From IMG/VR virus record IMGVR_UViG_3300001814_000052, positions 1 through 26,703 of that record: a stretch of 26,703 nucleotides of DNA; one strand, written 5' to 3'. Origin of the DNA: a virus. Below, piece after piece: positions 404 to 26,703 of the stretch. Position numbers and translations under genes: made by a program. Each line of letters opens with the position of its first letter. Position 1 is the first letter of the stretch. The notes under the pieces were generated by a model. It saw only the letters and a program-made list of their open reading frames with translations. It was not told where the DNA came from and did no database searches.

Positions 404-1981
404 CTATCCCTCAATTTCCGCTCCATCCTTAAATCTATAAACCAGTTTGCCTTTTATCGTTATGGTAAGCTTCGCAACCGCCACCGCCCACAGTTTATCG
501 TCAAATTCATCTAAGACCATTGGGCATGATTCAATACCCTTAATGAAGGTTTCGAGCATCAGGAACTTGTTCTGGTGCTCCCGGCGTTGCTCATCCAGTT
601 CAGCAAGCCGCTCGGAGGCTTTGCGGTACCGCTCCATGTATCCGGTGTGCCGCCCATTGAATTCTTCCTGACTGACCGCGACTCTTGCGTTCTCAGAGAT
701 TGCTTTTTTTGTTAGTTCAGTAACAATCTCAATCTCACGGCGTACTTCTGCTAACTCCGCCTCAATAGCCGAGCAATCGCATAAAGTCTCCTGCGCAAAG
801 CGGCAGTTGGCTAATAATTCCTCGCGTCCGCCCATCAATGTGTTGAACGCTACCAGGAATCGCTGTTTAATATCATCTTCCGTGACATGGGGCGTTTGGC
901 AATGCTTATCGTTTTTGTACTTCTCATTGCACCGCCAGATTACCCGGCGGTATTTGCTGTTTGAACCCCAGACCTTGGAGCCGTAAAACCCTCCGCAATC
1001 GCCACAGACTATTTTCGCCGAAAACGGGCTGCCGCAGCCACATGGCCTGCCGAGACCCTTGCGCCGCTCGATTTCCGCCTGCAACGCGTCGAACTCATCC
1101 GGCTCGATAATGGCGGGGTGGCTGTTTTGAACATAGTATTGCGGAACCTCGCCCTCGTTGTTTTTCCGCTTTTTAGTCAGGAAGTCCACTGTAAAGCCTT
1201 TTTGCAAAAGGGCATCGCCCTTGTATTTCTCATTTCCAAGCATGCTCTTTACCGTGGCGACCTGCCATCTCTTTTTCCCTGCCGGCGATGGAATGCCTTG
1301 GCTAGCGAGCTGCTTGGCAATCGCCGATGGTGTTTTGCCTTCCATGAACAGCCGGAATATCATCCGTACAATCTCGGCTTCGGATTCAACAATCCTCGGC
1401 AGGCCGTCCTCACCCTTTTCATAACCGAGAAATTGGCCGTATGGCAGGCTGACCTTGCCGTCCGCCATGCGCTTGCGCTGCCCCCAAGTGACATTCTCGG
1501 AGATGGAACGGCTTTCCTCCTGCGCAAGGCTGGACATTATCGTGATGAGAAGCTCACCCTTGCTGTCCAGCGTATAAATGTTCTCTTTCTCGAAGTAGAT
1601 CTCCACTCCTTTTTCCTTTAGCTGGCGCACTGTCACAAGGCTGTCCACCGTGTTCCTCGCGAAGCGGGATACGCTTTTGGTGATGATGAGGTCAATCTTG
1701 CCGTCAAGAGCATCGGCAATCATCTGCTTAAAGCCGTCACGTTTCTTTGTATTCGTGGCGCTAATCCCCTCATCGGTGTAGACCCGTACAAACTCCCAGT
1801 CCGCGCGATCCTTGATGTACTTTGTATAGTAGTCCACCTGCGCCTCGTAGCTGGTTAGCTGCTCTTCGCTATCAGTGGAAACCCTGGCATATGCCGCAGT
1901 CCTTCGTTTAGTGTTCAGATGTGTACCATTGGCGGAGTTTTGGCGAATGGTTGCCGGTATTATCCTTACGCTTGAAGCCAT
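404..1981 (-). CDS. Large serine recombinase (second of a tandem pair)
   Basis: This 525-residue site-specific recombinase would cut and rejoin DNA through a phosphoserine link to integrate or excise the element. The resolvase-type catalytic domain is at about residues 28-165, with the nucleophile in Y-A-R-V-S (Ser35) and the S-R-F-A-R-N segment near 105-110. A recombinase DNA-binding domain follows (about 190-300). Next come a zinc ribbon with Cys326, Cys329, Cys350 and Cys361, and a coiled-coil (about 405-475) of the kind that controls integration versus excision in this family. The ATG at 1981 has AAGGGGGG about 6 nt upstream, in the last codons of the preceding recombinase, whose stop is 1 nt before this ATG. 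The open frame extends further upstream, but that part only overlaps the preceding gene. It is probably the integrase, alone or with its partner. Confidence 0.93.
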   Translation of the reverse strand: MASSVRIIPATIRQNSANGTHLNTKRRTAAYARVSTDSEEQLTSYEAQVDYYTKYIKDRADWEFVRVYTDEGISATNTKKRDGFKQMIADALDGKIDLIITKSVSRFARNTVDSLVTVRQLKEKGVEIYFEKENIYTLDSKGELLITIMSSLAQEESRSISENVTWGQRKRMADGKVSLPYGQFLGYEKGEDGLPRIVESEAEIVRMIFRLFMEGKTPSAIAKQLASQGIPSPAGKKRWQVATVKSMLGNEKYKGDALLQKGFTVDFLTKKRKNNEGEVPQYYVQNSHPAIIEPDEFDALQAEIERRKGLGRPCGCGSPFSAKIVCGDCGGFYGSKVWGSNSKYRRVIWRCNEKYKNDKHCQTPHVTEDDIKQRFLVAFNTLMGGREELLANCRFAQETLCDCSAIEAELAEVRREIEIVTELTKKAISENARVAVSQEEFNGRHTGYMERYRKASERLAELDEQRREHQNKFLMLETFIKGIESCPMVLDEFDDKLWAVAVAKLTITIKGKLVYRFKDGAEIEG

Positions 1982-1982
1982 T

Positions 1983-3278
1983 TTATCGCCCCCCTTTCGC
2001 TCTTTGGCTGGCCGCATGGCGCATCTCGTCCGTCCAGCTTTCGCGGCGCGACCTGTCCTGCCAGGCCTTTTCGGTTGTCCTGCCATCGCGGAACACAAAG
2101 ACAAGCATGTTGAACTCAGGTACCCGGATTTCAGAAATTTCTCTTATGAAGATTCCAGCATCAAATTCTTCCTGACCGAGAACCTCGGCGCTGGTTGTAT
2201 AAAGAACCCGTTCCGGTATCTGCTTGGCGTGACAGGCGGCTTTGCCTTCCTTTAAGAAAGTGGAACACTGCCAGGCTGCCCTCCCGGCGGTAACCTTCCG
2301 CTTGTACTTCTTGCCGCAGTTTTCGCACCGGATGATGCCGCTGAAGGGGTATCGGCTACCGGTATCGCCCTTTGCGCCGCAGCTCCTGCGCCGCTCTTCC
2401 ATGACCGCCTGTACTCTCTCAAAGGTTGCCGTATCAATGATAGCCGGGTGAGTGCCCTCTGCCAAATACTGCGGCAGCTGGCCTTTGTTCCAGACCAGCT
2501 TTTTTGTCAAATGGTCGGCGACATACTTTTTCTGTAACAACGCTTTTCCGGTGTATTTTTCATTCTTAAGGATGGCGATCACGCGCTCACTATTCCAATC
2601 TCCGCCGCGAACCGTGGCTACGCCCATTTCCCTTAGCTTCTGTGCAATCTTGCCGCCGCTCATGCCGCCGCTATAGTCCTCAAAAATCATGTAAACGACG
2701 GATGCTTGCTCGGGATCGATCTTCACCTCGCCCTTGACGATGTGGTAGCCAAACATGAACCGCAGGCTGGCCAGTTCACCTTTTTCAAACTGTTTGCGGA
2801 TACGCCATTTACAGTTCTCACTTGCCGATAGACTTTCTTCTTGTGCGTAGGATGCGAGGATGGTCAGCATAAGCTCCCCGTCTCCGCTGATGGAGTGGAT
2901 GTTTTGCTCCTCAAAATATACATCCACGTCGAGCAGTTTTAACTCCCGCACAGTCTCAAGAAGTGTAACGGTATTCCTAGCAAAACGGGAAATGGACTTG
3001 GTGATGATCATGTCAATTTTGCCGTCCCTGCAGTCGGCGAGCATGCGCCGGAACTCAGGCCTGTTGTCTATCGTCCCCGTCAGCGCTTCATCGGCATATA
3101 CTCCGGCATATTCCCAGTCCGGTCGTCCTTGAATCAACGTGCTGTAATAGCTTACCTGGGCGGCGAGGGATTGAAGCATCGCGTCCTTGCCGCTTGATAC
3201 CCGCGCATAGGCGGCTACCTTTAGCCTTTTGGGGAATGATGGAACCGATGGAGCTGTTCGTGTGATGATTCGTTCCAT
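1983..3278 (-). CDS. Large serine recombinase (first of a tandem pair)
   Basis: This 431-residue recombinase has a catalytic domain at about residues 20-160, Ser28 in Y-A-R-V-S, and the S-R-F-A-R-N segment near 97-102. A recombinase domain follows (about 170-290), then a zinc ribbon with Cys318, Cys321, Cys338 and Cys349. It is shorter than its downstream neighbour and lacks an obvious long coiled-coil after the ribbon. The ATG at 3278 is preceded by GGAGG. The two recombinases are in one operon and clearly paralogous. Such pairs occur in clostridial elements and, in a different lineage, as CcrA/CcrB of SCCmec. Whether both are needed for one reaction, or act separately in integration and excision, cannot be read from sequence. 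Confidence 0.92.
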   Translation of the reverse strand: MERIITRTAPSVPSFPKRLKVAAYARVSSGKDAMLQSLAAQVSYYSTLIQGRPDWEYAGVYADEALTGTIDNRPEFRRMLADCRDGKIDMIITKSISRFARNTVTLLETVRELKLLDVDVYFEEQNIHSISGDGELMLTILASYAQEESLSASENCKWRIRKQFEKGELASLRFMFGYHIVKGEVKIDPEQASVVYMIFEDYSGGMSGGKIAQKLREMGVATVRGGDWNSERVIAILKNEKYTGKALLQKKYVADHLTKKLVWNKGQLPQYLAEGTHPAIIDTATFERVQAVMEERRRSCGAKGDTGSRYPFSGIIRCENCGKKYKRKVTAGRAAWQCSTFLKEGKAACHAKQIPERVLYTTSAEVLGQEEFDAGIFIREISEIRVPEFNMLVFVFRDGRTTEKAWQDRSRRESWTDEMRHAASQRAKGGR

Positions 3279-5384: not shown

Positions 5385-7895
5385 CTAAACGACTCCTGAA
5401 CGCAATCGAAATACCAGCGGGTCCTGGTGCCCGAGCGCCCACAACCCAACTCCTTTTAACCTCCATCTGTGCTTCGCCAGGTTAGCCAGCATATCGAAAT
5501 GCTCGGCGTCGGAGTAGTGGGCGATGGAGAAGCCCCTTGCGTCTCCCAGGAAAAACTGGGTAAGCCACAGTCCCCGGTCGCGCAGCCGGAAGGTAACAGC
5601 CCTGTCGTTGTCAAAAGCCGCGAAAGAATCAGTGTGCAGATAGTCGAAATCTGTCGAAATGCTTTCCTGCCTGGTCGCCGGTTCTTCCCCGGGGCCTTCA
5701 AAGCGGAAGTAGTCCCACGGTTCAAGCCATGTCACGCCGCTGCGCTGAATACGCCCCAGTGTCTGGATTTGCCCATCCGGCAGAGCCACGTCAAGGGCCT
5801 CCTGCGGTACATAAACATAAGGATCGCCCGCGTCCAGCAGGCCGCACTCACAGGCGGCGCCGCTGGTGCGCAGCCCGAAGCCGCCCAGTGTCGGCAGGGA
5901 TGCGGACAGGGCAAAGACCCGCGTGGTACCCACCCAGCAGTGCAATTCACTCCCGCGTGTTCTTACCCGCAGCGTATACCAAGTGTTTAAACTCACGCCC
6001 TGCGCCACGTCCGGCTGCAGCCTTGTCCATATCCCGCCTTGCCTTTGCCAAAGCTCCGCCGTCTGCGTGCCGCGCCGCAGCAGGAATAAATACAGATCGT
6101 TTACCCCCTGGGCTTTGAAAACCACGCCCATGGTGCCGTTCCCCGCCGTCATGCGCAGCCTGGCCCGGATGTTCAGGTCGCCAAACCCGTCGTGGGAGAG
6201 GTGCGCCTGGGCGTCCGCGCTTGCCTGGTCGGACTGGATTAACACCCGCCTTGCCGGGTCTGTATCCATGCTCCAGGCCCCGCCGCTGCGGTTGTAGAAG
6301 GCGAGCGTGTCGTCCCTAAAGTCGTCATACCAGACCCAGGCGTGCTCCGGGACGCTTCGCAGCACTTCGGGGGTGAGGATAAACTGCTCCGGCAGCACGA
6401 GGGTGCCGTTTACGTCTTTTAGCCTCCTCGGGGTGAAGGTAAATTCCGCCTCGCCGCCGGTCATGCTAAAATTAAACTGCGAACAGACCCTAAAGCCCCA
6501 AAACTGTGTTCCGTACTGACTGCCCGCACCGTGTACCTCTAAGGTGTGGCTTCCGGCGGACAAGTGGAACCGTCCGGCCTTCAGCCAGTGGGTGCGACGG
6601 TGGAGGGGGTACCAGTCGGGAAACGGACCGATTTGCAGCGGTGTCCCGTTTAGCCGCAGCTGCAAAACCTGACGGTCCCACCAGGGGCAATTCACCCTTG
6701 CCGCCAGGTCATATTCCCCCGCCTGGGGGACGGCAAAAGAAAAAAGGGCCAGGCCCTCTTCTTCCAGCACCGGTTGAGTCCCGGGAGGCGAACCCGGCGG
6801 GACGGGGAGAAGCTGGGGCGCCCTGGGGGAAATCCAGCCGCTGCCCACCGTCATAGCGCCGGAAACCTCGTCAAAGCTGCTGCCTGTCCTGTCCGCGACC
6901 TGCCCGGCAAACTCATAGCGCGGCTCTTTTTCATAGGCGACCAGGTAATTCCGCCTGACCCGGCCTGCCTGGCCGGAAACCTTAAAGACGGGGCTTGTAA
7001 CCCGCGCCGCGTCCATCCCTTCCTGGTAATCGTAGATATGCGGGAGAAGGTATGGGCTTTGGCTGTCCTCGTCCAGAAAACCGGCAAAGGAAAGACGCGG
7101 CTGCAGCTCGTGAAATGTAAAATCCCCCTGCTGCCAGCCAAGCCAGGCAAGGAAGGTGCCGCCGCTGCCCCGGTAAGCGCCCGGAACGGGCCGCCTATCA
7201 ATGCGCCAGTTGAAGCCGAAGCCGGGGATGCCGAGAAAGATTTTCTCCTTCGGTATCCGCGTTACCGCGTAGTCATATATCTCCTCCATCCACCACACCG
7301 GGCTGATGGGCCCGGGAGCGCTGCCCGCCCAGGCAAAGGCGTAGCTCATGATCACACAGGTATCAAAATAAGGCTCCATCCGGCGGTAATCGCACCAGCG
7401 CTCCCAGGATGGCGCGCCGTCCCCGGTCATGGGAGGCAAGTCCCAATGCACATAGTGTTGAATCGGGCGGCTCTTGATGCTATCGTAGATCCTCTTCGCC
7501 AGGGCCACCACGCCGTCCGGATTGTCGTTCGGCCCTTTTTCCAGGTCGATATCCACCCCGGTGGCGAAAGGGTACATATCCAGAATGCGGTGCAGCTCGC
7601 TGATAAACATGTCCTGCGCCCCGTTGGTGTTCTCTACGATGGCCCGAAAGCGGGAAAGGATGCCGTCGTTTCTGACCGTCAGCAGGTGGGTGATATGCGG
7701 CCAGCGCGCTACCCTTTCCAAATCGGCGGCGGGGATAACGCCGGTAATCCGCCCGGTGTTGTCGGGCACCAGAAAATCAAACAGCCCCATATGGGTTAGC
7801 CTGTCGCCGTAATCCCGCCACTCCTGCCTGGCCCGGGTGGTCTTTAAGAAAGACCAGGTCATAAACCCCCGGCCTTCTTGCCGCATACCGCTCAT
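5385..7895 (-). CDS. GH18-domain phage tail protein
   Basis: This 836-residue protein starts with a glycoside hydrolase family 18 barrel (about residues 30-330). The D-I-D-L-E segment at 115-119 supplies the catalytic acid Glu119, although the first Asp of the classical DxxDxDxE is Thr112. I-M-S-Y-A-F at 182-187 matches a second conserved GH18 strand. A galactose-binding-like region (about 380-475) and a LamG/concanavalin-like beta-sandwich (about 522-695) follow, with an unassigned C-terminal region. The ATG at 7895 forms ATGA with the upstream stop and has AAGGGGGG 8 nt away. There is no signal peptide. Its place between tail-tip genes and lysis genes suggests a virion-borne tail glycosidase that degrades or binds cell-surface glycan during adsorption, rather than a secreted chitinase. 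The actual substrate is unknown. Confidence 0.85.
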   Translation of the reverse strand: MSGMRQEGRGFMTWSFLKTTRARQEWRDYGDRLTHMGLFDFLVPDNTGRITGVIPAADLERVARWPHITHLLTVRNDGILSRFRAIVENTNGAQDMFISELHRILDMYPFATGVDIDLEKGPNDNPDGVVALAKRIYDSIKSRPIQHYVHWDLPPMTGDGAPSWERWCDYRRMEPYFDTCVIMSYAFAWAGSAPGPISPVWWMEEIYDYAVTRIPKEKIFLGIPGFGFNWRIDRRPVPGAYRGSGGTFLAWLGWQQGDFTFHELQPRLSFAGFLDEDSQSPYLLPHIYDYQEGMDAARVTSPVFKVSGQAGRVRRNYLVAYEKEPRYEFAGQVADRTGSSFDEVSGAMTVGSGWISPRAPQLLPVPPGSPPGTQPVLEEEGLALFSFAVPQAGEYDLAARVNCPWWDRQVLQLRLNGTPLQIGPFPDWYPLHRRTHWLKAGRFHLSAGSHTLEVHGAGSQYGTQFWGFRVCSQFNFSMTGGEAEFTFTPRRLKDVNGTLVLPEQFILTPEVLRSVPEHAWVWYDDFRDDTLAFYNRSGGAWSMDTDPARRVLIQSDQASADAQAHLSHDGFGDLNIRARLRMTAGNGTMGVVFKAQGVNDLYLFLLRRGTQTAELWQRQGGIWTRLQPDVAQGVSLNTWYTLRVRTRGSELHCWVGTTRVFALSASLPTLGGFGLRTSGAACECGLLDAGDPYVYVPQEALDVALPDGQIQTLGRIQRSGVTWLEPWDYFRFEGPGEEPATRQESISTDFDYLHTDSFAAFDNDRAVTFRLRDRGLWLTQFFLGDARGFSIAHYSDAEHFDMLANLAKHRWRLKGVGLWALGHQDPLVFRLRSGVV

Positions 7896-8524
7896 ATCCG
7901 TTTCCCCCCTTCCGCCAGCTGCCATTCCTGCAGTGTGACGAGCACCCTGGCCGAAGGCTCCGGCCGCAAAGTTGCCTGTCCCGCGCCCAGCCCCAGCAGA
8001 GTAACAGGGAAGCGGGGATTCCCCCAGGCGGCATAGAGGAACCGCCCTTTAAACTGAACGGGGCTGCCGTTTTGCAATACCCGCCGCTCAGTGCCGATAA
8101 CCGCTAACTCCTGGTTGCTCGCCAGCGCTTGCGGGAAATAAAAAAGCCTGGTCAGCCGGTCCTGCCCCAAGGCGACGCCTTTGCTTAAGTTTTCCTTTGC
8201 CATTATGTGAAAGTCCAGGGCCGTGGGCACGATTACCGCCCCCGGCTCCACCGCCCAGTAGGCGCCGCGGTTGGGGATAATCAAGGTTTTAGCGCCCCGC
8301 ACCACGGCGTTGTAGTGCTTTGGCGGGGACGGGCTGCCGTTCTCCCGCAGTTTTTGCAGCATCTCCTTGGTGTTTTGGGAGTAGCCGGTTAAATGCTTTC
8401 CTTCCTGGAGCATCACGTCGGTAAAGGAAAAAAAGCCAACGGCGTCAGACATTACGGTGTCAACCCTGATACTGGCCACCCGCTTTCCCTCTTCCGGCGC
8501 GAAACGAAACAAATAGCGCTTCAT
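7892..8524 (-). CDS. Putative tail-tip/baseplate protein, unknown function
   Basis: This 210-residue protein has no recognisable domain. It is a soluble, beta-rich-looking sequence without signal peptide or membrane segment; the middle has several hydrophobic strands (A-V-I-V-P-T near 96-101, L-A-V-I-G near 139-144). Its ATG is preceded by AGGTGAG, and its stop overlaps the GH18 tail gene start (ATGA). Position in the tail operon between the Gp37-like protein and the GH18 protein suggests a baseplate or fibre-attachment component. That assignment rests only on gene order. Confidence 0.7.
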   Translation of the reverse strand: MKRYLFRFAPEEGKRVASIRVDTVMSDAVGFFSFTDVMLQEGKHLTGYSQNTKEMLQKLRENGSPSPPKHYNAVVRGAKTLIIPNRGAYWAVEPGAVIVPTALDFHIMAKENLSKGVALGQDRLTRLFYFPQALASNQELAVIGTERRVLQNGSPVQFKGRFLYAAWGNPRFPVTLLGLGAGQATLRPEPSARVLVTLQEWQLAEGGKRI

Positions 8525-14013: not shown

Positions 14014-14645
14014 TCACCTCCATTTCGCCGGGACTTTGAGCCCCTTGCTCCGCGCGATTCCGATCAGCTGCTCCGTGGAAAGGCGGCTTGGGGCGGCCTT
14101 TTTTCTTCCGCTGTCTTTGAGCATTTTCTTTAGGCTGGGCAGCCGCTTCTGCCTGGCGAAGGCTTCGATGTGCCAAGCCAGGTAGATAAGCTCTTGCCTT
14201 CGCTCCGCTTTTTCCTCGGCGTAGCCCTCAAAGAAAAGCCCCAGCTCAAAGGGGGTCAACTCCCAAACTTGGGCCGGGTGCATTTTTAGTCTCTTTACGG
14301 CGGCGGAGAACAGCTCGGCAAAGCTTATTTCCCGGCTGCCTCCACCGCCTGCGGGTTTCCCGGCTGCGCGCCGAAGGCCAGCGTCATCGCTTCGCCCAGT
14401 TTCCCGGCCACCGTGGTAATGTCGCTGTACTCGTCAATTAAGTCCGCGCACTTTTCCGGGGTCAGCTCTTTGTCCTCATGAAAAAGACCGGCGTAGACAA
14501 TTGTCCGCAGGTCTTTCACGGAGATATTGTCGAGGTCAAGCTTTGTCAGGTTCTTGCCCGTCAGCTCCTCGATCTTGATCAGCGCGTTCATGCCGTAACG
14601 GAGCGTCCTCGGTTTGTCCAGCTCTATAGTAATGCCTGGTTTCAC
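14014..14645 (-). CDS. Tail assembly chaperone GT fusion made by -1 frameshift
   Basis: The downstream frame (14014-14355) has no credible start of its own. Homologous-looking sequence (S-F-A-E-L-F-S-A-A-V-K-R-L) runs upstream of its only ATG at 14283 and stays open back into the end of the preceding gene. A -1 slip at GGGAAAC (14361-14355) joins it to the G protein after residue 97, giving a protein of about 210 residues that continues through P-A-G-G-G-S-R-E-I-S-F-A-E-L. This mirrors lambda gpG/gpGT, in which the T extension recruits tail tube subunits to the tape measure. The C-terminal part is helical and basic (K-K-M-L-K-D-S-G-R-K-K). The start is the GTG at 14645. Confidence 0.8.
14299..14361 (-). 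promoter_or_regulatory. Programmed -1 frameshift element
   Basis: A canonical X-XXY-YYZ heptamer, GGGAAAC, is read in the zero frame at 14361-14355. After a 5-nt spacer comes a stem of 10 pairs: GGCGGTGGAG (14349-14340) with CTCCGCCGCC (14308-14299), having one G-U pair and a 31-nt loop. The shifted frame matches the downstream chaperone frame exactly. The same type of signal (GGGAAAG) drives lambda gpG/gpGT synthesis. Confidence 0.85.
14325..14645 (-). CDS. Tail assembly chaperone G (short form)
   Basis: This unshifted product has 106 residues when started at GTG 14645, which has AGGGAG about 10 nt upstream. A TTG seven codons earlier is less likely because it lies in the preceding terminator. 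The protein is a small acidic helical protein (I-E-E-L-T-G, then E-K-C-A-D-L-I-D-E-Y) typical of tail assembly chaperones, coating the tape measure before tube polymerisation. It ends in A-A-G-K just after the slippery site. The gene immediately follows an inserted cargo gene whose terminator abuts its ribosome binding site. Confidence 0.85.
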   Translation of the reverse strand: MKPGITIELDKPRTLRYGMNALIKIEELTGKNLTKLDLDNISVKDLRTIVYAGLFHEDKELTPEKCADLIDEYSDITTVAGKLGEAMTLAFGAQPGNPQAVEAAGK

Positions 14646-14664
14646 AAATATCACTCTCCCTAAC

Positions 14665-14694
14665 AAAAAACGCCCTTTTGAAAGGACGCTTTTT
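14665..14694 (-). terminator. Intrinsic terminator after the glycosylase-like gene
   Basis: On the minus strand, a stem of about 14 pairs (AAAAAGCGTCCTTT with AAAGGGCGTTTTTT, two G-U pairs, 2-nt loop) ends in a run of six T. It closes the inserted AT-rich gene that stops at 14719. Because the late operon must pass through it to reach the tail chaperones, it probably attenuates or needs antitermination. The stem is nearly symmetrical and could act on both strands. Confidence 0.8.
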
Positions 14695-14718
14695 AAGTGT
14701 AAGTATCTAAGCCTATTT

Positions 14719-15291
14719 TCACTTATTTAAGTATTCTTTAAGGTCATTCATACTTCGTTTCGCTGTTTCACTTTTACAAGGTGTCCCCGGCATAGGAAAT
14801 ACAAATACTCTGCTCCCCCCAAAGAATCCTGAGAGTTTATCATTGAAACCATATGAAGCTTTTTCCTTAACGCCAAATTCAAACGCCAAGATTTTGTCCA
14901 AAACACCTTTGTATACGAAAACAACTACCTTTGGCTTAAAGCTATTAATAGCGTTTAATATCCTTTGCATCCCGCTTATATACTCACTTCTTGTTGGTTC
15001 AGATCCATATTCCCTTGGTTTTTTTACTATGTCCATTAGTCCGTATCGGTGCTCAAGAAGTACATCATCTTCTTTTTTACCAAAAGGAACTTTAAGCAAT
15101 CCATGATTTTGAAGAATGTTCCAAAACATTTGGCCTTGCTTCCCCTGAAAATAATGTCCAATATTAACGCTACAAGGTGCAGGAACCTTGGCAATAAACA
15201 GTATGTCAAGATTGATGTTTTCTTTTGGCAAAATATCTTTCAGGGTTTCAAAACTGCCCTCTGGACTACTCATCTTAACCCTGTAACCCAC
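14719..15291 (-). CDS. Mug/TDG-like uracil-DNA glycosylase-fold cargo protein
   Basis: This 190-residue protein follows the pattern of the mismatch-specific (Mug/TDG) branch of the uracil-DNA glycosylase fold: D-I-L-F-I-A then G-H-Y-F-Q-G near 45-50, F-W-N-I-L near 56-60, Y-G-L-M-D-I-V-K-K-P at 83-92, K-P-K-V-V-V-F at 119-125, and a C-terminal F-P-M-P-G-T near 165-170. The catalytic loop differs: where Mug has G-I-N-P-G, this has A-K-V-P-A (34-38), so the key Asn is Val36. Typical base excision may be lost or changed. The gene is visibly AT-rich among GC-rich neighbours and has its own promoter and terminator, making it a moron acquired by transfer. The GTG at 15291 has AGGGAG 8 nt upstream; an ATG six codons later is an alternative. 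Confidence 0.75.
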   Translation of the reverse strand: MGYRVKMSSPEGSFETLKDILPKENINLDILFIAKVPAPCSVNIGHYFQGKQGQMFWNILQNHGLLKVPFGKKEDDVLLEHRYGLMDIVKKPREYGSEPTRSEYISGMQRILNAINSFKPKVVVFVYKGVLDKILAFEFGVKEKASYGFNDKLSGFFGGSRVFVFPMPGTPCKSETAKRSMNDLKEYLNK

Positions 15292-15320
15292 ATCATCATC
15301 TCCCTATATTTTCTATTTTG

Positions 15321-15349
15321 ATTATAATGTAAGGCTTGAGCTAAGTCTA
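15321..15349 (-). promoter_or_regulatory. Sigma-A-type promoter of the glycosylase-like gene
   Basis: A perfect TATAAT (-10, 15326-15321) lies 17 nt from TAGACT (-35, 15349-15344), which matches four of six consensus positions including G-A-C. The start codon is about 30 nt downstream. The promoter lies in an AT-rich gap after the tail tube gene. It would express the cargo gene from the prophage independently of the late operon. Confidence 0.75.
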
Positions 15350-15367
15350 TGTTCAGAGTATTGGGTG

Positions 15368-15982
15368 TTAGTCCTCCCTGTAATACAGATTGCCGCTGCC
15401 CTCAAACTCGATGCTCTCATTGACCACATCGTCGGCGGCTAATTCAATGCTGTCGCCCGCGATTACCGCGTAGCCCTCATAGCGGTTTTTGTTGGTGCCT
15501 GTATCCAAATACAGGGCCACGATGATTTCCCGGCCGAGCCTTTCCGACAAGCGCCCGTCCGCCCAGTAGCTCTCCGCGGAGGCCGTAAACCCCTTCACGG
15601 CGGGCAGGTGTTCCTTCCAGCCCTCACTCGCAAAGGTGGTTATATCCGCCGTGTCTGCCGCCAGCTCGGCGCTCCAGTTAAAGAAGCCGCCCGCCTGGTC
15701 AACGTTTACGCTTTTGCCGCTGACCGTCACCGTGGCTCCTTCAGGCAGCGGCGCTAAAAAGCGGACCACGCCGCCCAAGTGCTCTACGGTAAACCCGCCG
15801 CTCACCGCCACATCGTTGACGTACACCACAACGGGCGTGTTTTTGTCCAGATACCTTAATGTTTCGTTTTCAATGGTATAGGCCGTCCTCTGCGGGTTGC
15901 CCGCGGCGCTTTCCTTGATAAAGGCCACCGGCTCAGCCTCCGTCTGCAGGAACACCGCGCCTACTTTGCCAGCTAAAGGCAT
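15368..15982 (-). CDS. Tail tube-like protein with extra N-terminal domain
   Basis: In this 204-residue protein, the C-terminal 105 residues clearly parallel the whole upstream 127-residue tail protein: shared W-S-A-E-L-A-A-D-T-A-D / W-T-L-E-L-G-A-D-T-L-D, a following W-K segment, A-S-A-E, Y-E-G / Y-S-G, and a final S-I-E-F-E-G-S-G / S-F-E-F-Q-G-T-G pattern. Between the short N-terminal strand and this core is an insert at about residues 33-95 of beta-strand character, possibly Ig-like. A tail tube subunit with a decoration domain is the best reading; one of the two paralogues may be the major tube protein and the other a minor or terminating one. The ATG at 15982 is 14 nt from the upstream stop with AAGGCGG upstream. 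Confidence 0.78.
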   Translation of the reverse strand: MPLAGKVGAVFLQTEAEPVAFIKESAAGNPQRTAYTIENETLRYLDKNTPVVVYVNDVAVSGGFTVEHLGGVVRFLAPLPEGATVTVSGKSVNVDQAGGFFNWSAELAADTADITTFASEGWKEHLPAVKGFTASAESYWADGRLSERLGREIIVALYLDTGTNKNRYEGYAVIAGDSIELAADDVVNESIEFEGSGNLYYRED

Positions 15983-15996
15983 GATTCTTCACCGCC

Positions 15997-16380
15997 TTAG
16001 TTGTATTCCAGCGCGCCGGTGCCCTGGAACTCGAAGGAGATGCTGACCGTATCGTCCACCGGGTCCTCCACGGACAGGCCGGAGATATGGGCGCTGCCGG
16101 AATAATAATTTGCCGCGTTGACATAGAGCCTGAGCGAGACTTCCGCGCCGTTTAAGTACGCTTCCTGCAGCGCCCTCTGGCCAGTGGCGTCCGTATGCAC
16201 CGAGTAGAAGCCTTCGGCCGATGCCGACCATTCCTTTAAACCGGCGATGAATTTCTTCCAGTCGTCGCCGAGGGCCGTTACGTCAAGCGTATCCGCGCCC
16301 AGCTCCAGTGTCCAGCTGCTGATATCCATGACGGCGCTTGCGCCCAGCCCCAATTTGCCGCTTTTACCTGCTATGGCCAT
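15997..16380 (-). CDS. Tail tube protein
   Basis: This 127-residue beta-rich protein has the compact shape of siphovirus tail tube subunits (TP901-1 major tail protein type): strand blocks around W-T-L-E-L near 22-26, S-A-S-A-E near 52-56, and a final F-E-F-Q-G-T-G-A-L-E. The shared core with its downstream neighbour shows tandem duplication. It follows the tail terminator gene by 3 nt and precedes the tail chaperone genes, the usual place for the tube gene. It would polymerise around the tape measure to form the tail tube. Confidence 0.8.
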   Translation of the reverse strand: MAIAGKSGKLGLGASAVMDISSWTLELGADTLDVTALGDDWKKFIAGLKEWSASAEGFYSVHTDATGQRALQEAYLNGAEVSLRLYVNAANYYSGSAHISGLSVEDPVDDTVSISFEFQGTGALEYN

Positions 16381-19041: not shown

Positions 19042-19398
19042 TTAGTGGGAAATTAATGAGAGCCGCTTATCCAGCGACTCGATGGGGGTACCCGTTTTCG
19101 GTTTGGCCTTGGGGATTTTCCCAAGCAGGGAGTTGGCGACCGCCATGCGGCTGAAGATCAGGCCTTCGCCTGAGTCTTGCGGTTCCTCGCTGGATGTGAA
19201 CATAATCTTGTCCGCAAAGCCGAGTTCCACAGCTTTTTTGGCGTTCATCCAGGTTTCCGCGTCCATCAGGTGGGAGAGTTTCACCCTTGAAAGGCCGGAC
19301 TTTAATTCATAAGCGTTGATGATGCTCTCCTTGACCTCATCAAGCAAGGCCTTAGCGCGTAGCATCTCCTCGCTGTCGCCGATGGCGATGGTGCTGGG
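19042..19398 (-). CDS. ClpP-like head maturation protease, 3' exon
   Basis: This exon codes 118 residues, beginning P-S-T-I-A-I-G-D immediately after the intron 3' end at 19399. It holds the rest of the ClpP fold: the E-M-L-R-A-K-A-L-L helix, Y-E-L-K-S-G-L near 40-46 of the exon, and M-D-A-E-T-W-M-N-A-K-K-A-V-E-L-G-F-A-D, which contains the probable catalytic Asp. Unspliced, an ATG at 19428 and about ten intron codons could open the frame, but these are not part of the protein. Joined to the 5' exon in frame it gives a 229-residue serine protease that cleaves capsid scaffolding. Confidence 0.88.
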   Translation of the reverse strand, partial: PSTIAIGDSEEMLRAKALLDEVKESIINAYELKSGLSRVKLSHLMDAETWMNAKKAVELGFADKIMFTSSEEPQDSGEGLIFSRMAVANSLLGKIPKAKPKTGTPIESLDKRLSLISH

Positions 19399-19459
19399 GT
19401 AGGGTAGGAAAACACCGCCTTGCCGCATCCCTGCGGTAGGTTTGTGCAGTCCCCCCTCC

Positions 19460-19493
19460 GAACCGGACTTACCCCTCTCAAGGTATCCGGCTC
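19460..19493 (-). ncRNA. Group II intron domain V (catalytic hairpin)
   Basis: A 34-nt hairpin on the minus strand starts GAGCCGGATACC and ends in GTCCGGTTC. The arms pair as in standard domain V, with the AGC triad at positions 2-4 and a purine-rich tetraloop (GAGA). It begins 13 nt after the stop codon of the intron-encoded protein, the usual place for domain V. This conservation indicates the ribozyme core is not visibly decayed. Confidence 0.88.
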
Positions 19494-19506
19494 TCCATTT
19501 GCGCTT

Positions 19507-21303
19507 TTACGCATGATAGCTCCTACCATGTATTTCATAATGGCATTTTTGACAGACCACAAGCGTTTTTCTCTTCCTTGAAATCATCACTTTTTCCCAC
19601 ATGGCTTTCCCTTTGAGATTTTTTAGTTTGTTGATATGGTGTATCTCAAATGGGGGGCTTTCTCCGCCGCACAACTCGCATTTGTTTGCTTTCAGGCGTT
19701 TTTCAAGTTCATTGAACCCATAATGCCTTTGGGGGATTGCATCCACATCGTCAGCATATTTCCAGCTTCTTTTCAGGTCTGTAAAGCGGACGATTACCAT
19801 TTGCTTCTGACCGCTTTTTGTTACATAGGGGATGCCCCATGTTTTTCCGAACCTGAATTTTTGGATTATCTGCGACATATTCATCTGATGTTTCCGAGCA
19901 AGTGTTTTCAGGCAGCTATACTCCATAAGGTATACAAAGTATTTTAGCTTGCTGAAATTGCTTGCCATACGATAATAGTTGCATATCCCGCGTGTTTGCG
20001 AGTTGTAGTGGTCTACGATTTCAAGGTCTGTGTTGTGCAGGACAGGGTTACAGTGTTGTGACTGCAATTTCCCATCTCTACCGACTTTCGCTATCTTTTT
20101 GTCTATTACAAACCGTTCGATTTTCTCGCCAAGCGGCACAAGTAATTCCACCGTTCCGTTGAGTGTGCGTTGCACAATTCCATCAGAACGGCGTTTTAGT
20201 TCACCAGTCCGCCGCACATTCACGTCATACCCCAGAAATCTGGCGTATTCTGCGCTGTGAGTGATTTTGGTCTTTTCATCGCTTAGTTCGAGTTTCAAGC
20301 GGTTTGCGAGAAATTCTTTCAAAAGAGTTTTTACCTGTTGGCATTCTTCCTTGGTGCCGTTCACGCCAATGAGAAAATCGTCCGCGTAACGCACATATAC
20401 CAATTTTTTATCAGTAGCGTCTTTCCATGGGATTTTGACAAGTTCCTTATGCAAACGCTTTTTGTCAGCCACGAGCCGTTGAATTTCTTCGGCGTTTTGG
20501 GCGGTTTTAAGCTGTCGGCGAACTTTTTCAATCTCCCATTGCTTGTCCGCATACTCTTTGGTGCAGGTGCGCTGTGGCGGTGCGTCAAACCCCTTTTTCA
20601 GTTCGTCCATCTTTTTGTCAAGTTCATGCAAGTAGATATTTGCGAGGATAGGTGAGATAATACCGCCTTGTGGCGTTCCGCTGTATGTCGCGTTATACTT
20701 CCAGTCCTCCAAATATCCCGCTTTAAGAAACTTTCCTATCAGATTTACAAACCGGGAGTCCTTGATTTTCTCGGACAGCAGCGATAGCAGGACAGAGTGG
20801 TCTATATTATCGAAGCAACCTTTTATGTCGCCCTCAATAAACCACCTTATACCGTTAAAGCCTTTGGTGATTTGTTGTATGGCCGTATGACAGCTTCTAT
20901 TCGGTCTGAATCCATGTGAACGGTCACTGAATATCGGCTCATATATTGCTTCAAGGTACATTCTGATAACATCCTGCACAATTTTATCGCGGAATGACGG
21001 GATTCCAAGCGGACGCATTTTCCCGTTTCGTTTTGGAATGTGCGTCCTGCGCACGGGTTTTGGCTCGTAATTCATATTCGCTAAATCTTGAATAATTTTT
21101 GCGATATATTCCGTACCAAAACCATCCGCCGTATCGCTATCAGTGCCTTTTGTCGCTGCGCCCTTGTTGGCATACAAATTTCTATATGCCGTATAGTAAA
21201 CGTCCTCTCTTAAAAGATAGCGGTAAAGTCGGGTAAACACCCCATCTTTATGGTCTGTTGAGCTTTTTCTGATACGTTCCAAAATCTCTGGCGTTGGTTT
21301 CAT
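19507..21303 (-). CDS. ltrA: Group II intron reverse transcriptase/maturase/endonuclease
   Basis: This 598-residue intron-encoded protein helps splicing and target-primed reverse transcription. The reverse transcriptase domain covers about residues 70-390: I-P-K-R-N-G-K-M-R-P-L-G-I-P near 89-102, H-G-F-R-P-N-R-S near 130-137, G-T-P-Q-G-G near 209-214 and catalytic Y-A-D-D at 306-309. A charged insertion of about 60 residues precedes the Y-A-D-D block. The maturase X domain lies at about 420-520. A C-terminal HNH endonuclease (about 542-598) has Cys542, Cys545, His555-His556, Cys584 and Cys587. The ATG at 21303 is preferred because GGGAGGAG lies about 9 nt upstream; an upstream in-frame ATG at 21366 lacks a good site. 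All motifs are intact, so the intron is probably mobile. Confidence 0.94.
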   Translation of the reverse strand: MKPTPEILERIRKSSTDHKDGVFTRLYRYLLREDVYYTAYRNLYANKGAATKGTDSDTADGFGTEYIAKIIQDLANMNYEPKPVRRTHIPKRNGKMRPLGIPSFRDKIVQDVIRMYLEAIYEPIFSDRSHGFRPNRSCHTAIQQITKGFNGIRWFIEGDIKGCFDNIDHSVLLSLLSEKIKDSRFVNLIGKFLKAGYLEDWKYNATYSGTPQGGIISPILANIYLHELDKKMDELKKGFDAPPQRTCTKEYADKQWEIEKVRRQLKTAQNAEEIQRLVADKKRLHKELVKIPWKDATDKKLVYVRYADDFLIGVNGTKEECQQVKTLLKEFLANRLKLELSDEKTKITHSAEYARFLGYDVNVRRTGELKRRSDGIVQRTLNGTVELLVPLGEKIERFVIDKKIAKVGRDGKLQSQHCNPVLHNTDLEIVDHYNSQTRGICNYYRMASNFSKLKYFVYLMEYSCLKTLARKHQMNMSQIIQKFRFGKTWGIPYVTKSGQKQMVIVRFTDLKRSWKYADDVDAIPQRHYGFNELEKRLKANKCELCGGESPPFEIHHINKLKNLKGKAMWEKVMISRKRKTLVVCQKCHYEIHGRSYHA

Positions 21304-21572
21304 TTGAGGTTTCTCCTCCCTTTCGCCATTGTTCTTGAAGTCGCGCAAACTGCGCCCCTTCGCCATGTAAGGGTCGTTATCCCTCGCGGACTACTATGGG
21401 CGCTCCGTACCCGTGGGTCATATTCAGGCGCAACCGCCATAGCCTTGCGGCATTGATCTTTAGGGTATCTCCAGTTAACATTTTCAACAGGTGTGGGAAT
21501 TGTCGGTTTCGCTTTCGGTTTCTTAACACAAGTTCTCTTGCTCACGGCGCGACGCTGTAATTACACTTTTGA

Positions 21573-21579
21573 CCACAAC
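21573..21579 (-). other. Intron EBS1 (target-recognition) sequence
   Basis: The minus-strand bases GTTGTGG pair perfectly with the seven bases that end the 5' exon (CCACAAC, 21866-21860). This is the main exon-recognition contact (EBS1/IBS1). A full 7-bp match supports that this is the intron's native or retargeted homing site. The second contact (EBS2) was not identified with certainty. Confidence 0.6.
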
Positions 21580-21859
21580 CCTATCAAAAGTCTATCGCGC
21601 ACGGGGTTTCAGGCTAGTTTCCCCGTTCCTATGATAACGGACGTAAAACCTCACGTTCACCAAACACAGGTTAAACCTCATATTCCCTTGTCATTGCGGC
21701 TCAGTCGTACCCTTTAGCCTTTGGATAACTTGCCGCTTTCCTGCCGTGCTTTGTTCCCGTACCAGCTTTCGCCTTTCGGTTAGGCAGGTTGACTTTCCCG
21801 TAATTATGGGAAGCGGGCACCTAAATTCCCGCAGTTGAAAACGCCCTATCTGGACGCAC

Positions 21860-22192
21860 GTTGTGGATCATCAGCATGGAGACGGGGGACATATACACCT
21901 CGCCGCCGGCCATGGCGATGACCGATGCGGCGCTGGCAGCGAGGCCGTCAATTTTGACGGTGACCTGCCCGGCATAGTCCATGAGCATGTTGTAAATCTG
22001 CGCCGCCGCGAAAACATCACCGCCGGGAGAGTTAATCCACACCGTGATGTTGCCCGCGCCCGCCAGCAGCTCGCCTTTAAACAGCTTGGGCGTCACCTCG
22101 TCGCCCCACCATGTTTCTTGCGCGATGGGGCCGTTTAAATAGAGGGTGCGCTCTTCGTCCGAATTGCGCACCCAGTTCCAGAATTTCCTCAT
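21860..22192 (-). CDS. ClpP-like head maturation protease, 5' exon
   Basis: This exon codes 111 residues of a ClpP-family serine protease: Y-L-N-G-P-I near 18-23, N-S-P-G-G-D-V near 54-60, the nucleophile in G-L-A-A-S (Ser87), and M-L-M-I-H-N ending with the probable catalytic His110. The exon stops one codon after that histidine at the group II intron. Read through, translation would add only a short intron-coded tail and stop. The ATG at 22192 overlaps the portal stop (ATGA). With the 3' exon the protein is 229 residues long, normal for phage ClpP-like prohead proteases. Confidence 0.9.
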
Positions 22193-25122: not shown

Positions 25123-25311
25123 CTATTTTCTCTCATCCGCATCGCCCGTCAGGATAAAGCGGCTGTATTCGGCCTTGTGTTCCTCCAGGTACAGCACAAG
25201 TTCGTAAAAGCCGCGCACATAGGCTTCGTGCTGGACGCGCGGCAGGTCAAACATATTGGTGACGCCGCTGTCCCGGATGGCGAGGATTTGCTCTTTTATC
25301 GTTTCATTCAT
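25123..25311 (-). CDS. DUF5049-like small protein
   Basis: This 62-residue protein starts Met-Asn-Glu-Thr-Ile-Lys-Glu-Gln. The pattern I-L-A-I-R-D-S-G-V-T-N-M-F-D, then R-G-F-Y-E-L-V-L-Y-L-E-E-H and F-I-L-T-G-D resembles the DUF5049 family, commonly found before terminase in clostridial prophages. No function is known for the family. The ATG at 25311 has GGAGGAAACC upstream and overlaps the stop of the cyclotransferase gene by 8 bp, so the two are coupled. Confidence 0.8.
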   Translation of the reverse strand: MNETIKEQILAIRDSGVTNMFDLPRVQHEAYVRGFYELVLYLEEHKAEYSRFILTGDADERK

Positions 25312-25768
25312 AGGCGGTTTCCTCCGTTTCCGCAGAATCGATGGTCGCCTGGCGCAGGATCTCCACATCGAAGCCAGCGTCCCTGTAGCCGTCAAGGATA
25401 ACCGAGTAGTAATAGCAGCTTGGCTGGCCAAGCGGCCTGCCCTCGTTCATGATATACACCATCGCGCTGACTGTCTTGCCGTTTAGCTCTACTTTCACCG
25501 TTTCCTTGCGGTAAAAGAACGGCCAGCCCTCATAGCGGTCGAGCGCCACTTCGTCAGCCTGGGTGATCTCCCAGACCAGCACAGGGACGCTGCCGCTTGG
25601 GCAAGGCTCCACCGTCGCCACCGCGTTTTCGCGCGCGCCCCGGAACAGGAGCCGCCAGCCATCCATCATGCTTGCCCCCAGCACCCTTGCCGTGGGGCAT
25701 CTGTCCGCCATCTGCTCCCGGTTTAAGTTGGAACCGTAGGCGATGTACAGCTTGTTGCGCTTATCCAT
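25304..25768 (-). CDS. AIG2-like gamma-glutamylcyclotransferase
   Basis: This 154-residue protein of the GGCT/AIG2 fold would release 5-oxoproline from gamma-glutamyl amines or peptides. The nucleotide-like loop Y-G-S-N-L-N is at residues 11-16 and the probable catalytic Glu80 lies in L-D-R-Y-E-G-W-P. F-Y-R-K follows directly, as in the family, and V-Y-I-M-N near 103-107 completes the core strand. The ATG at 25768 has a strong AAGGAGG site. It lies 38 nt after an amidoligase gene. This pairing of an amide-forming and an amide-breaking enzyme has been described in phage and prophage neighbourhoods. The substrate is unknown. Confidence 0.88.
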   Translation of the reverse strand: MDKRNKLYIAYGSNLNREQMADRCPTARVLGASMMDGWRLLFRGARENAVATVEPCPSGSVPVLVWEITQADEVALDRYEGWPFFYRKETVKVELNGKTVSAMVYIMNEGRPLGQPSCYYYSVILDGYRDAGFDVEILRQATIDSAETEETAYE

Positions 25769-25806
25769 TGTCTATGTCCTCCTTGCTCTTTGGCCGCGGG
25801 GGCGGC

Positions 25807-26703
25807 TCAAGCCGCCCGAAACCGCCAGGCCGCCGAGCCGTTTAAGTGTGCGGTCAAGTGCTCCCGGCAGTTGGCGAACTCCTCGCCGATGAAGCCGATG
25901 CGGTTTAGGTAGGTCCGCATGGCGAACTTTTCGTTCTCGGCCTGGGGCTTTTTCGCCGAGGCGCATTTTTGCGTCAGCGCCTGGTGGTTCAAAGCCAGGG
26001 CGAGGACTATGTAACTTCTGATCTTGCCTGCGTGAAGCTCGCTGTTGAAGCCTCTCAGCTCCACCGTGCGGTTGCCGGTGAAAAAGCTGTGCAGGTTGAG
26101 GAAGTGGTAGCGGCTGTGGTGGTAATGCCGGTCGCGGCTTTCACTGTAGCCCTCGTACCAGATCTCCTCAATCGCCCGCAGGGTTTTGGGCTTTCTGCGG
26201 TTCATCTTCTCCACCAGCAGGCTGTCCATCTTCTTGCAGTAGCTCATCCGCTCCGGCGCAATCTGCAGCGCTTTGTAGAAAAGGTCATTCTTGCTGGCGA
26301 TGATGTTCACGAAGTTGCGGATGCTGCGCGGCGTGTGGCTTGCCCCGTCAAGGTGGAGGTGGATGCCGCAGGTGGCGCTCGCGAAGGCTCCGGCCTTGCG
26401 CAGTTTGCGCACCAGCTCCTGCAGGGTGGCGATGTCCTCGCGGTAGGTGAGGATGGGGCTGACCAGCTCCACGCTGTATTCGCGGCTGGCCGGAACCCGC
26501 TGCCGTCCTTGCCTCATTTGGCAGGTGATGCTGCCGTCGCTCATGAACTTCCAGACCCTGCCGTCCGGCGCTGTGACCTTCTTGGTGTCGTAGGTGTCGG
26601 CTGCGCTCGTCACCGTTCCGGCGAGGTGTTCCGCCGCGATGCGCGCCGCCTCGCTTCTGGTGATGCCCGTGAACTCGATCTCAATCCCGAATCTTCCCGT
26701 TAG
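25807..26703 (-). CDS. Amidoligase family protein (5' end beyond window)
   Basis: The frame stays open to the right edge of the window, so the real start lies outside. The 298 residues visible begin inside a typical amidoligase N-terminus (R-F-G-I-E-I-E-F-T-G near 4-13), the glutamine-synthetase-like fold's first conserved acidic strand. Further features are Y-S-V-E-L-V-S-P-I-L (near 76-85, a second acidic strand), C-G-I-H-L-H-L-D near 112-119, and a C-terminal T-V-E-L-R-G-F-N-S near 211-219, all usual for Amidoligase_2. A GTG at 26613 could be mistaken for a start but has conserved sequence upstream. The enzyme would form an ATP-dependent amide or peptide-like bond, possibly modifying a peptide or protein. 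A short GC hairpin spans its stop codon. Confidence 0.88.
   Translation of the reverse strand, partial: LTGRFGIEIEFTGITRSEAARIAAEHLAGTVTSAADTYDTKKVTAPDGRVWKFMSDGSITCQMRQGRQRVPASREYSVELVSPILTYREDIATLQELVRKLRKAGAFASATCGIHLHLDGASHTPRSIRNFVNIIASKNDLFYKALQIAPERMSYCKKMDSLLVEKMNRRKPKTLRAIEEIWYEGYSESRDRHYHHSRYHFLNLHSFFTGNRTVELRGFNSELHAGKIRSYIVLALALNHQALTQKCASAKKPQAENEKFAMRTYLNRIGFIGEEFANCREHLTAHLNGSAAWRFRAA

What the first reader, a model, noticed from the sequence alone, without database searches (positions are those of the whole stretch)
14665..15349. Moron in the tail operon: glycosylase-fold protein with a degenerate catalytic loop
An AT-rich gene with its own TATAAT promoter and strong terminator sits between the tail tube and tail chaperone genes. 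It follows the Mug/TDG layout, but the usual G-I-N-P-G is A-K-V-P-A, losing the key Asn. Such a protein, made from the silent prophage, could bind or process modified DNA for host benefit or phage competition. It may be a member of a little-studied glycosylase-fold branch.
Basis: partly seen in the sequence, partly recalled or inferred. Interest (0 to 1): 0.65.

Follow-up and report, generated by a model that had tools for sequence, protein, structure and literature searches.

The report
Prophage moron encoding unusual DNA-glycosylase-fold protein
A bacterial virus carries, slipped between two of its tail genes, a foreign gene for a protein shaped like the DNA-repair enzyme TDG but lacking its usual catalytic residue; the same rare protein type sits beside antiviral defence genes in some distant bacteria, so it may help infected cells resist rival viruses, though its activity is untested.

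Summary
A 37% GC cassette (about 14646-15367, minus strand) with a promoter-like site, ribosome site, 190-codon gene (14719-15291) and intrinsic terminator lies between tail-tube and tail-chaperone genes of a 57% GC Clostridia (pro)phage. Sixteen related contigs lack it (tail genes at most 44 nt apart); two phage contigs and a Clostridia MAG carry it. It is a moron, not a tail gene. The protein has the uracil-DNA glycosylase fold (Pfam above cut-off; AlphaFold2 pLDDT 96; best PDB match human TDG). The missing Asn is not decay: eight bacterial sequences from five phyla and two phage copies form one clade (support 100/100) with loop [AG]-K-[TV]-P-x-P, while 28 of 30 sisters keep N-P. The clade is rare and patchy. 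Of eight annotated bacterial loci, three lie beside BREX, HaeII R-M plus Vsr, or Mrr/type ISP genes. Best explanation: a lysogen-expressed, Brig-like base-excision protein against phages with modified DNA. Fold, clade and moron anatomy are shown; activity, substrate and defence are inferred. Main rivals: a mismatch-repair companion of DNA methyltransferases, and a catalytically dead binder.

The parts
14646..15367 (-). Inserted moron cassette between tail-tube stop codon and tail-chaperone start
   Evidence: The two flanking genes abut (at most 44 nt apart) in 16 related contigs; 704 nt between aligned gene ends in L002 and L003; GC drop
15321..15349 (-). Promoter-like TAGACT-17-TATAAT
   Evidence: 10/12 consensus match, about 30 nt upstream of the start; number of such matches in the region not above chance
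15300..15305 (-). Shine-Dalgarno-like AGGGAG, 8 nt before GTG
   Evidence: Read directly from sequence
14719..15291 (-). 190-aa UDG-superfamily protein gene (Asn-less TDG/MUG-like clade)
   Evidence: PF03167 above cut-off; AlphaFold2 pLDDT 96.2, pTM 0.92; TDG best structural match; tree clade 100/100
15175..15192 (-). Motif 1, A-K-V-P-A-P (residues 34-39); V36 at the TDG/Mug catalytic Asn position, K35 invariant in the clade
15031..15033 (-). D87 in GLMDIVK, at the base-reading Asn position of TDG (FTNMVER); invariant D in clade, D in 28 of 30 sisters
14776..14799 (-). Motif 2 region F-P-M-P-G-T-P-C (residues 165-172)
14665..14694 (-). Intrinsic terminator hairpin with U tract
   Evidence: -18 kcal/mol, z -2.3
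14655..14659 (-). GGGAG, ribosome site for the downstream chaperone gene supplied by the insert's right end
   Evidence: Read directly from sequence; not at this place in empty sites
15368..15982 (-). Upstream neighbour: tail tube-like protein
   Evidence: PHROG 1407
14325..14645 (-). Downstream neighbour: tail chaperone-position protein (start corrected to GTG 14645)
   Evidence: PHROG 2115; start by comparison with empty sites

Best explanation
The cassette is a moron: a self-contained transcription unit picked up by a temperate Clostridia phage in the gap between two tail genes. Its product is a single-domain protein of a rare TDG/MUG-like clade of the uracil-DNA glycosylase fold in which motif 1 reads [AG]-K-[TV]-P instead of G-x-N-P. 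The most likely mechanism: it is made in the lysogen from its own promoter, scans DNA, flips out a modified base of an incoming phage and removes it, leaving abasic sites that block the competitor, in the manner of Brig1. Water positioning would rest on a residue other than motif-1 Asn, as in UDG families 4-6, and the invariant Asp87 at the base-reading position would favour a cytosine-type base. Shown: anatomy, recent acquisition or exchange, fold, clade. Inferred: expression in the lysogen, catalysis, substrate, defence.
For: Moron: 16 related contigs without the insert and clean junctions; GC 0.373 against 0.57; cassette coding DNA 98% identical (dS 0.045) between two phage types whose flanking tail genes have dS 0.20-0.64, so the cassette moved or was exchanged after the flanks diverged. 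Fold. Functional constraint: 41 invariant columns among nine proteins, the others 44-53% identical to the window's; one clade 100/100; K35, P99, Y104, Y127, Y147, N150, F157, G169 invariant in the clade and mostly not in its sisters. Defence link: BrxA/BrxB/BrxC beside L085; HaeII restriction enzyme, C5 methyltransferase and Vsr beside L078; Mrr-like nuclease, T5orf172 and type ISP beside L043; no R-M or BREX family listed among 82 neighbours of 26 sister-family loci (first 25 of 30 families shown). Patchy spread: no new member in about 1,440 sampled genomes of five groups. Precedent: Brig1 and Brig3 are UDG-superfamily antiphage enzymes, Brig1 relatives often near BREX, relying on acidic pocket residues (Brig1 E147, which stands where Asn is usual; Brig3 D127) (PMC11078745, PMC13160076).
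Against: No enzyme assay; the motif-1 Asn needed by TDG/MUG is missing and no replacement catalytic residue is proven. Five of eight annotated bacterial loci are not beside known defence genes; the sample is small, post hoc, and compares +-3 genes for the clade with +-2 for the sisters. PADLOC has no model for the protein. The nearest fold is TDG/MUG, not Brig1's nearest (family 4, Sulfolobus). D87 is shared with the sister family, so it does not mark the clade. The HaeII-Vsr context equally suits mismatch repair. The promoter match is weak evidence.
Confidence: 0.42

Rival explanations
1. Repair companion: it removes T or U from T:G/U:G mismatches that arise where cytosine methyltransferases act, as TDG-like enzymes and Vsr do, and in the prophage simply lowers mutation or protects phage DNA.
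For: Closest solved structures are TDG and Mug; one relative sits in one operon-like row with HaeII R-M, a C5 methyltransferase and Vsr.
Against: The catalytic Asn of TDG/MUG is absent from the whole clade; BREX and type ISP neighbours do not fit 5mC repair; rare patchy distribution is unlike a repair gene; no C5 methyltransferase was recognised in the window proteins examined.
Confidence: 0.2
2. Catalytically dead glycosylase-fold protein that binds particular DNA (lesion, modified base or mismatch) and acts as a blocker, sensor or regulator.
For: Motif-1 Asn replaced in all members; TDG N140A crystal forms, which still bind DNA, are the top sequence matches; motif 2 also altered.
Against: UDG families 4, 5 and 6 also lack this residue (PMC5387724) and are enzymes; several pocket-type residues (H46, Y47, W57, D87) are invariant, though H46 and Y47 were demanded by the search pattern.
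Confidence: 0.22
3. Counter-defence: the phage uses it against a host base-excision or restriction defence.
For: Phage-borne; lies among late genes.
Against: Its own terminator and probable promoter inside a late operon point to separate expression; bacterial relatives outside phages lie beside defence genes, not phage genes.
Confidence: 0.06
4. Tail or morphogenesis gene, or a decaying passenger of no function.
For: It lies in the tail operon; composition is foreign.
Against: Absent from 16 related phages with the same tail genes; UDG fold; open frame, dN/dS 0.25 against L003 although based on few changes; strong clade-wide constraint.
Confidence: 0.05

Closest known systems
TDG/MUG (UDG superfamily family 2)
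   Same: Best structural match (human TDG, TM 0.73, E 9e-12; E. coli Mug) and layout TL.DI, GH(Y/H)(F/Y).G..G..FW, G..(D/N)..
   Different: Motif-1 catalytic Asn replaced by T/V with a preceding invariant Lys; motif 2 FP(M/L)PGTPC; NCBIfam TDG/Mug scores far below cut-off
Sister bacterial 'uracil-DNA glycosylase family protein' group (N-P-A/S-P-x-S-V-x-x-G-H-Y-Y-Q-G)
   Same: 22-33% identity, same motif frame, Asp at position 87
   Different: 28 of 30 keep motif-1 Asn; no R-M/BREX neighbours found in 26 loci; motif 2 MPGPY/F
Brig1 / Brig3 antiphage DNA glycosylases
   Same: UDG superfamily, patchy, near BREX and R-M, acidic residue in the base-reading pocket (papers)
   Different: Brig1's nearest structure is a family 4 UDG; this one's is TDG. 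Direct sequence comparison not done
Family 6 hypoxanthine-DNA glycosylase
   Same: No motif-1 Asn; weak profile similarity over residues 27-100
   Different: TIGR04274 13.9 bits against cut-off 80; no Asn before FW
Phage morons (own promoter and terminator, foreign composition)
   Same: Anatomical hallmarks, empty sites in relatives
   Different: Cargo type (this glycosylase clade) seen in no phage record of INPHARED and in no other IMG/VR lineage scanned

Membership tests
UDG superfamily (PF03167) | Curated profile score and alpha/beta fold | tested here: met
   38.1 bits > 24.3; all 40 family members match; AlphaFold2 plus Foldseek
TDG/MUG family 2 | Motif 1 G-I-N-P-G with catalytic Asn | tested here: not met
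   A-K-V-P-A; clade [AG]-K-[TV]-P
TDG/MUG family 2 | NCBIfam TIGR00584 / NF007570 cut-offs | tested here: not met
   44.1 vs 402.6 and 37.9 vs 144 bits
TDG/MUG family 2 | Nearest solved structure TDG/MUG | tested here: met
   Top 26 Foldseek hits are TDG/MUG
TDG/MUG family 2 | G:T/G:U base excision | not testable with these tools
   Needs assay
Family 4 UDG | Four Cys of the Fe-S cluster | tested here: not met
   Only two Cys in the protein (C40, C172)
Family 6 HDG | TIGR04274 score | tested here: not met
   13.9 vs 80 bits
Brig-type antiphage glycosylase | Excises a modified phage base and protects cells | not testable with these tools
   Needs assay
Brig-type antiphage glycosylase | Location in defence islands | tested here: inconclusive
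   3 of 8 annotated bacterial loci
Brig-type antiphage glycosylase | Sequence homology to Brig1/Brig3 | not tested
   Brig sequences were not at hand
Moron | Absent from close relatives at the same site | tested here: met
   16 contigs
Moron | Foreign base composition | tested here: met
   0.373 vs 0.567
Moron | Own promoter and terminator | tested here: inconclusive
   Terminator good; promoter match not above chance count
Moron | Expression during lysogeny | not testable with these tools
   No transcript data

The most novel reading that the evidence does not exclude
A previously unnamed, TDG-related clade of DNA glycosylases with a K-[TV]-P catalytic loop is a stand-alone antiphage base-excision system, distinct from Brig1/Brig3, travelling between defence islands and a prophage and attacking a modified base (probably a cytosine derivative) with a new catalytic arrangement.
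Probability: 0.28. Interest if true: 0.78.

Novelty: new variant of a known kind. Interest (0 to 1): 0.52.

Why it matters
Base excision as phage defence was shown only in 2024 (Brig1). A second, TDG-like lineage carried by a prophage and found beside BREX and R-M genes would widen that class, show prophages deploying it against rivals, and offer a glycosylase lacking the textbook catalytic residue whose substrate can be tested directly. Even if it is a dead binder, the clade is a clean natural case of a changed motif 1 kept across five phyla.

Tried and rejected
Essential tail gene: rejected by empty sites. Family 4 and family 6 UDG: rejected by scores and missing Cys. L004/L005 from the first viral scan: short chance matches on the wrong strand of another phage, discarded. 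Homologue in annotated phages: none. More IMG/VR members with profile-derived patterns: none beyond L002/L003. More bacterial members by genome sampling (about 1,440 genomes, five groups): none. PADLOC model for the protein: none. Mapping of the D. radiodurans MUG Asp93 onto the clade could not be settled and is not claimed. A literature search found a UDG domain among DefensePredictor's predicted systems (PMC13092281), but whether it is this clade could not be told.

Full report
OBSERVATION. The ORF at 14719-15291 (minus strand, GTG start, 190 aa) is real. It has GC 0.373 in a 0.567 window, with neighbours at 0.55-0.59. On either side are tail genes: upstream a tube-like protein (15368-15982, PHROG 1407), downstream a PHROG 2115 tail protein in the chaperone position. 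TAGACT-17-TATAAT lies at 15349-15321, but promoter-like matches in the region (2) do not exceed shuffles (1.8). An AGGGAG ribosome site stands 8 nt before the GTG. The 3' hairpin at 14665-14694 folds to -18 kcal/mol, z -2.3.

IT IS A MORON. Viral scans with the two flanking proteins gave 18 distinct contigs with both genes. In 16 of them the two genes overlap or are separated by at most 44 nt; in the closest, the junction reads GAC-TGA-GGGC-ATG-AAA-CC. In two (the contig behind L002/L006/L023, and L003) 704 nt intervene, with the same cassette. The Clostridia MAG contig L058 carries the start of the same gene after the same tube gene, which points to a Clostridia host; the capsid protein is 73% identical to that of a Syntrophomonadaceae phage. 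The right end of the insert brings its own GGGAG ribosome site, so translation of the chaperone can continue. Between the window and L003 the gene is 98% identical (dS 0.045) while the flanking tail genes show dS 0.20 to 0.64. The simplest reading is that the cassette was exchanged between these phages after they diverged.

FOLD. Pfam UDG superfamily, 38.1 bits against a cut-off of 24.3; phmmer matches TDG and Mug chains; a nine-sequence profile improves TDG to 3.5e-14. AlphaFold2 with a 40-row alignment gives pLDDT 96.2, pTM 0.92. Foldseek's first 26 PDB hits are TDG or MUG (TM by query 0.66-0.75), followed by UdgX and family 4/5 enzymes. Viral predicted structures are weaker matches.

THE LOOP IS A CLADE SIGNATURE. 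A DNA pattern for P-x-P-x-S-V-x-x-G-H-Y-[YF]-Q-G was scanned over genomes of 84,980 species: 49 loci, all with an open frame around the motif. Those usable at full length fall into two kinds. Thirty keep the ordinary frame (28 with G/A-x-N-P, two with H in place of N). Ten, counting the window and L003, read [VI]-[AG]-K-[TV]-P-[AST]-P. The ten form one side of a branch in the maximum-likelihood tree, support 100/100, branch length 1.72. The eight bacterial ones come from Bacillota, Chloroflexota, Pseudomonadota, Bacteroidota and Actinomycetota; the nearest to the phage gene is Paenibacillus cymbidii (48% identity, fork 99/87). Forty-one columns are invariant in the clade, among them K35, H46, Y47, Q49, W57, D75, D87, K90, E98-P99, Y104, Y127-K128, Y147, N150, F157; those inside the search pattern were demanded by it and are not independent evidence. 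The change is thus old and kept, not decay. The motif-1 Asp/Asn is also missing in UDG families 4, 5 and 6 (PMC5387724), and D. radiodurans MUG uses a novel catalytic Asp (PMC5128194). Asp87 aligns with the Asn of TDG's FTNMVER, which I take from general knowledge to be the base-reading residue; Brig1 has Glu (E147) where such enzymes usually have Asn, and needs it for immunity (PMC11078745). An acidic residue there would suit a cytosine-type Watson-Crick edge; this is inference, and the sister family has Asp too.

DISTRIBUTION AND NEIGHBOURS. Beyond the seeds no further member was found in 398 genomes of the host MAG's phylum, 296 of the phylum of the Bacteroides member, 249 of the class of the Anaerolineales member, 399 of the order of Paraburkholderia and 104 of the family of Paenibacillus: rare and patchy. 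Neighbours: L085 beside brxA, brxB and brxC (PADLOC E 6e-86, 4e-68, 7e-156); L078 directly downstream of a HaeII-type restriction enzyme, C5 methyltransferase and Vsr; L043 among Mrr_cat, T5orf172, ResIII helicase and type ISP genes. L056 and L088 lie among plasmid- and mobile-element-type genes (my reading of the sequences; RadC and DDE transposase by Pfam). L076, L048 and L087 show no defence gene; L065 was not annotated. Among 82 neighbours of 26 sister loci no R-M or BREX family appears in the listed PADLOC families. Three of eight against none of 26 gives a Fisher probability near 0.01 (hand calculation), but the count is post hoc, the ranges differ (+-3 against +-2 genes), and the third locus relies on weaker matches.

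MECHANISM PROPOSED. (1) The cassette is transcribed from the repressed prophage (inferred). (2) The protein binds DNA and flips a base into the pocket (inferred from fold). (3) It removes a modified base of an invading phage, with water held by a residue other than motif-1 Asn (inferred). (4) Abasic sites stop the competitor, as for Brig1 (by analogy). Fold, clade and moron anatomy are shown; steps 1-4 are not. Confidence 0.42 for the whole reading. Against it stand the dead-binder reading (0.22) and the methyltransferase-linked mismatch-repair reading (0.20), for which the HaeII-Vsr neighbour is as good an argument.

KNOWN OR NEW. The superfamily, morons and antiphage glycosylases are known. 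This clade, with its own loop and its presence in a phage, reaches no curated family cut-off below the superfamily level and no annotated phage. I file it as a new variant of a known kind.

Noticed in passing
window 19399-21820 (-): A group II intron (Rfam RF00029 at 19399-19495; RT/maturase/HNH ORF 19507-21366) splits the ClpP-like prohead protease gene (Clp protease matches at 21821-22192 and 19042-19428); it also sits in the IMG/VR relative L002.
   Followed up: partly
window 404-3278 (-): Two large serine recombinases in tandem (resolvase, recombinase and zinc ribbon domains), overlapping slightly; probably the integration module.
   Followed up: partly
window 15368-16380 (-): Two neighbouring tail-tube-like genes (204 and 127 aa, both PHROG 1407); the longer has an extra N-terminal part of about 90 aa that varies most between relatives (69-78% DNA identity at 15700-15999 against L003).
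   Followed up: partly
window 25304-26613 (-): Putative amidoligase (PF12224) next to a gamma-glutamylcyclotransferase-like protein (GGACT), just beyond the terminase gene.
   Followed up: no
window 5385-7925 (-): Tail-region protein with a glycosyl hydrolase family 18 domain.
   Followed up: no
L038:2998-5383 and L039: Arthrobacter-type conjugative plasmids carry an Asn-keeping sister gene in a conserved block with a DUF1643 protein and a DNA methyltransferase.
   Followed up: no
L047 and L079 (Nocardioides): Sister-family members with His in place of motif-1 Asn (V-G-L-H-P-V-P): a second change of the catalytic loop.
   Followed up: no
L062 and L074 (Micrococcaceae): Sister-family members with a C-terminal extension of about 60 aa after the glycosylase domain.
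   Followed up: no
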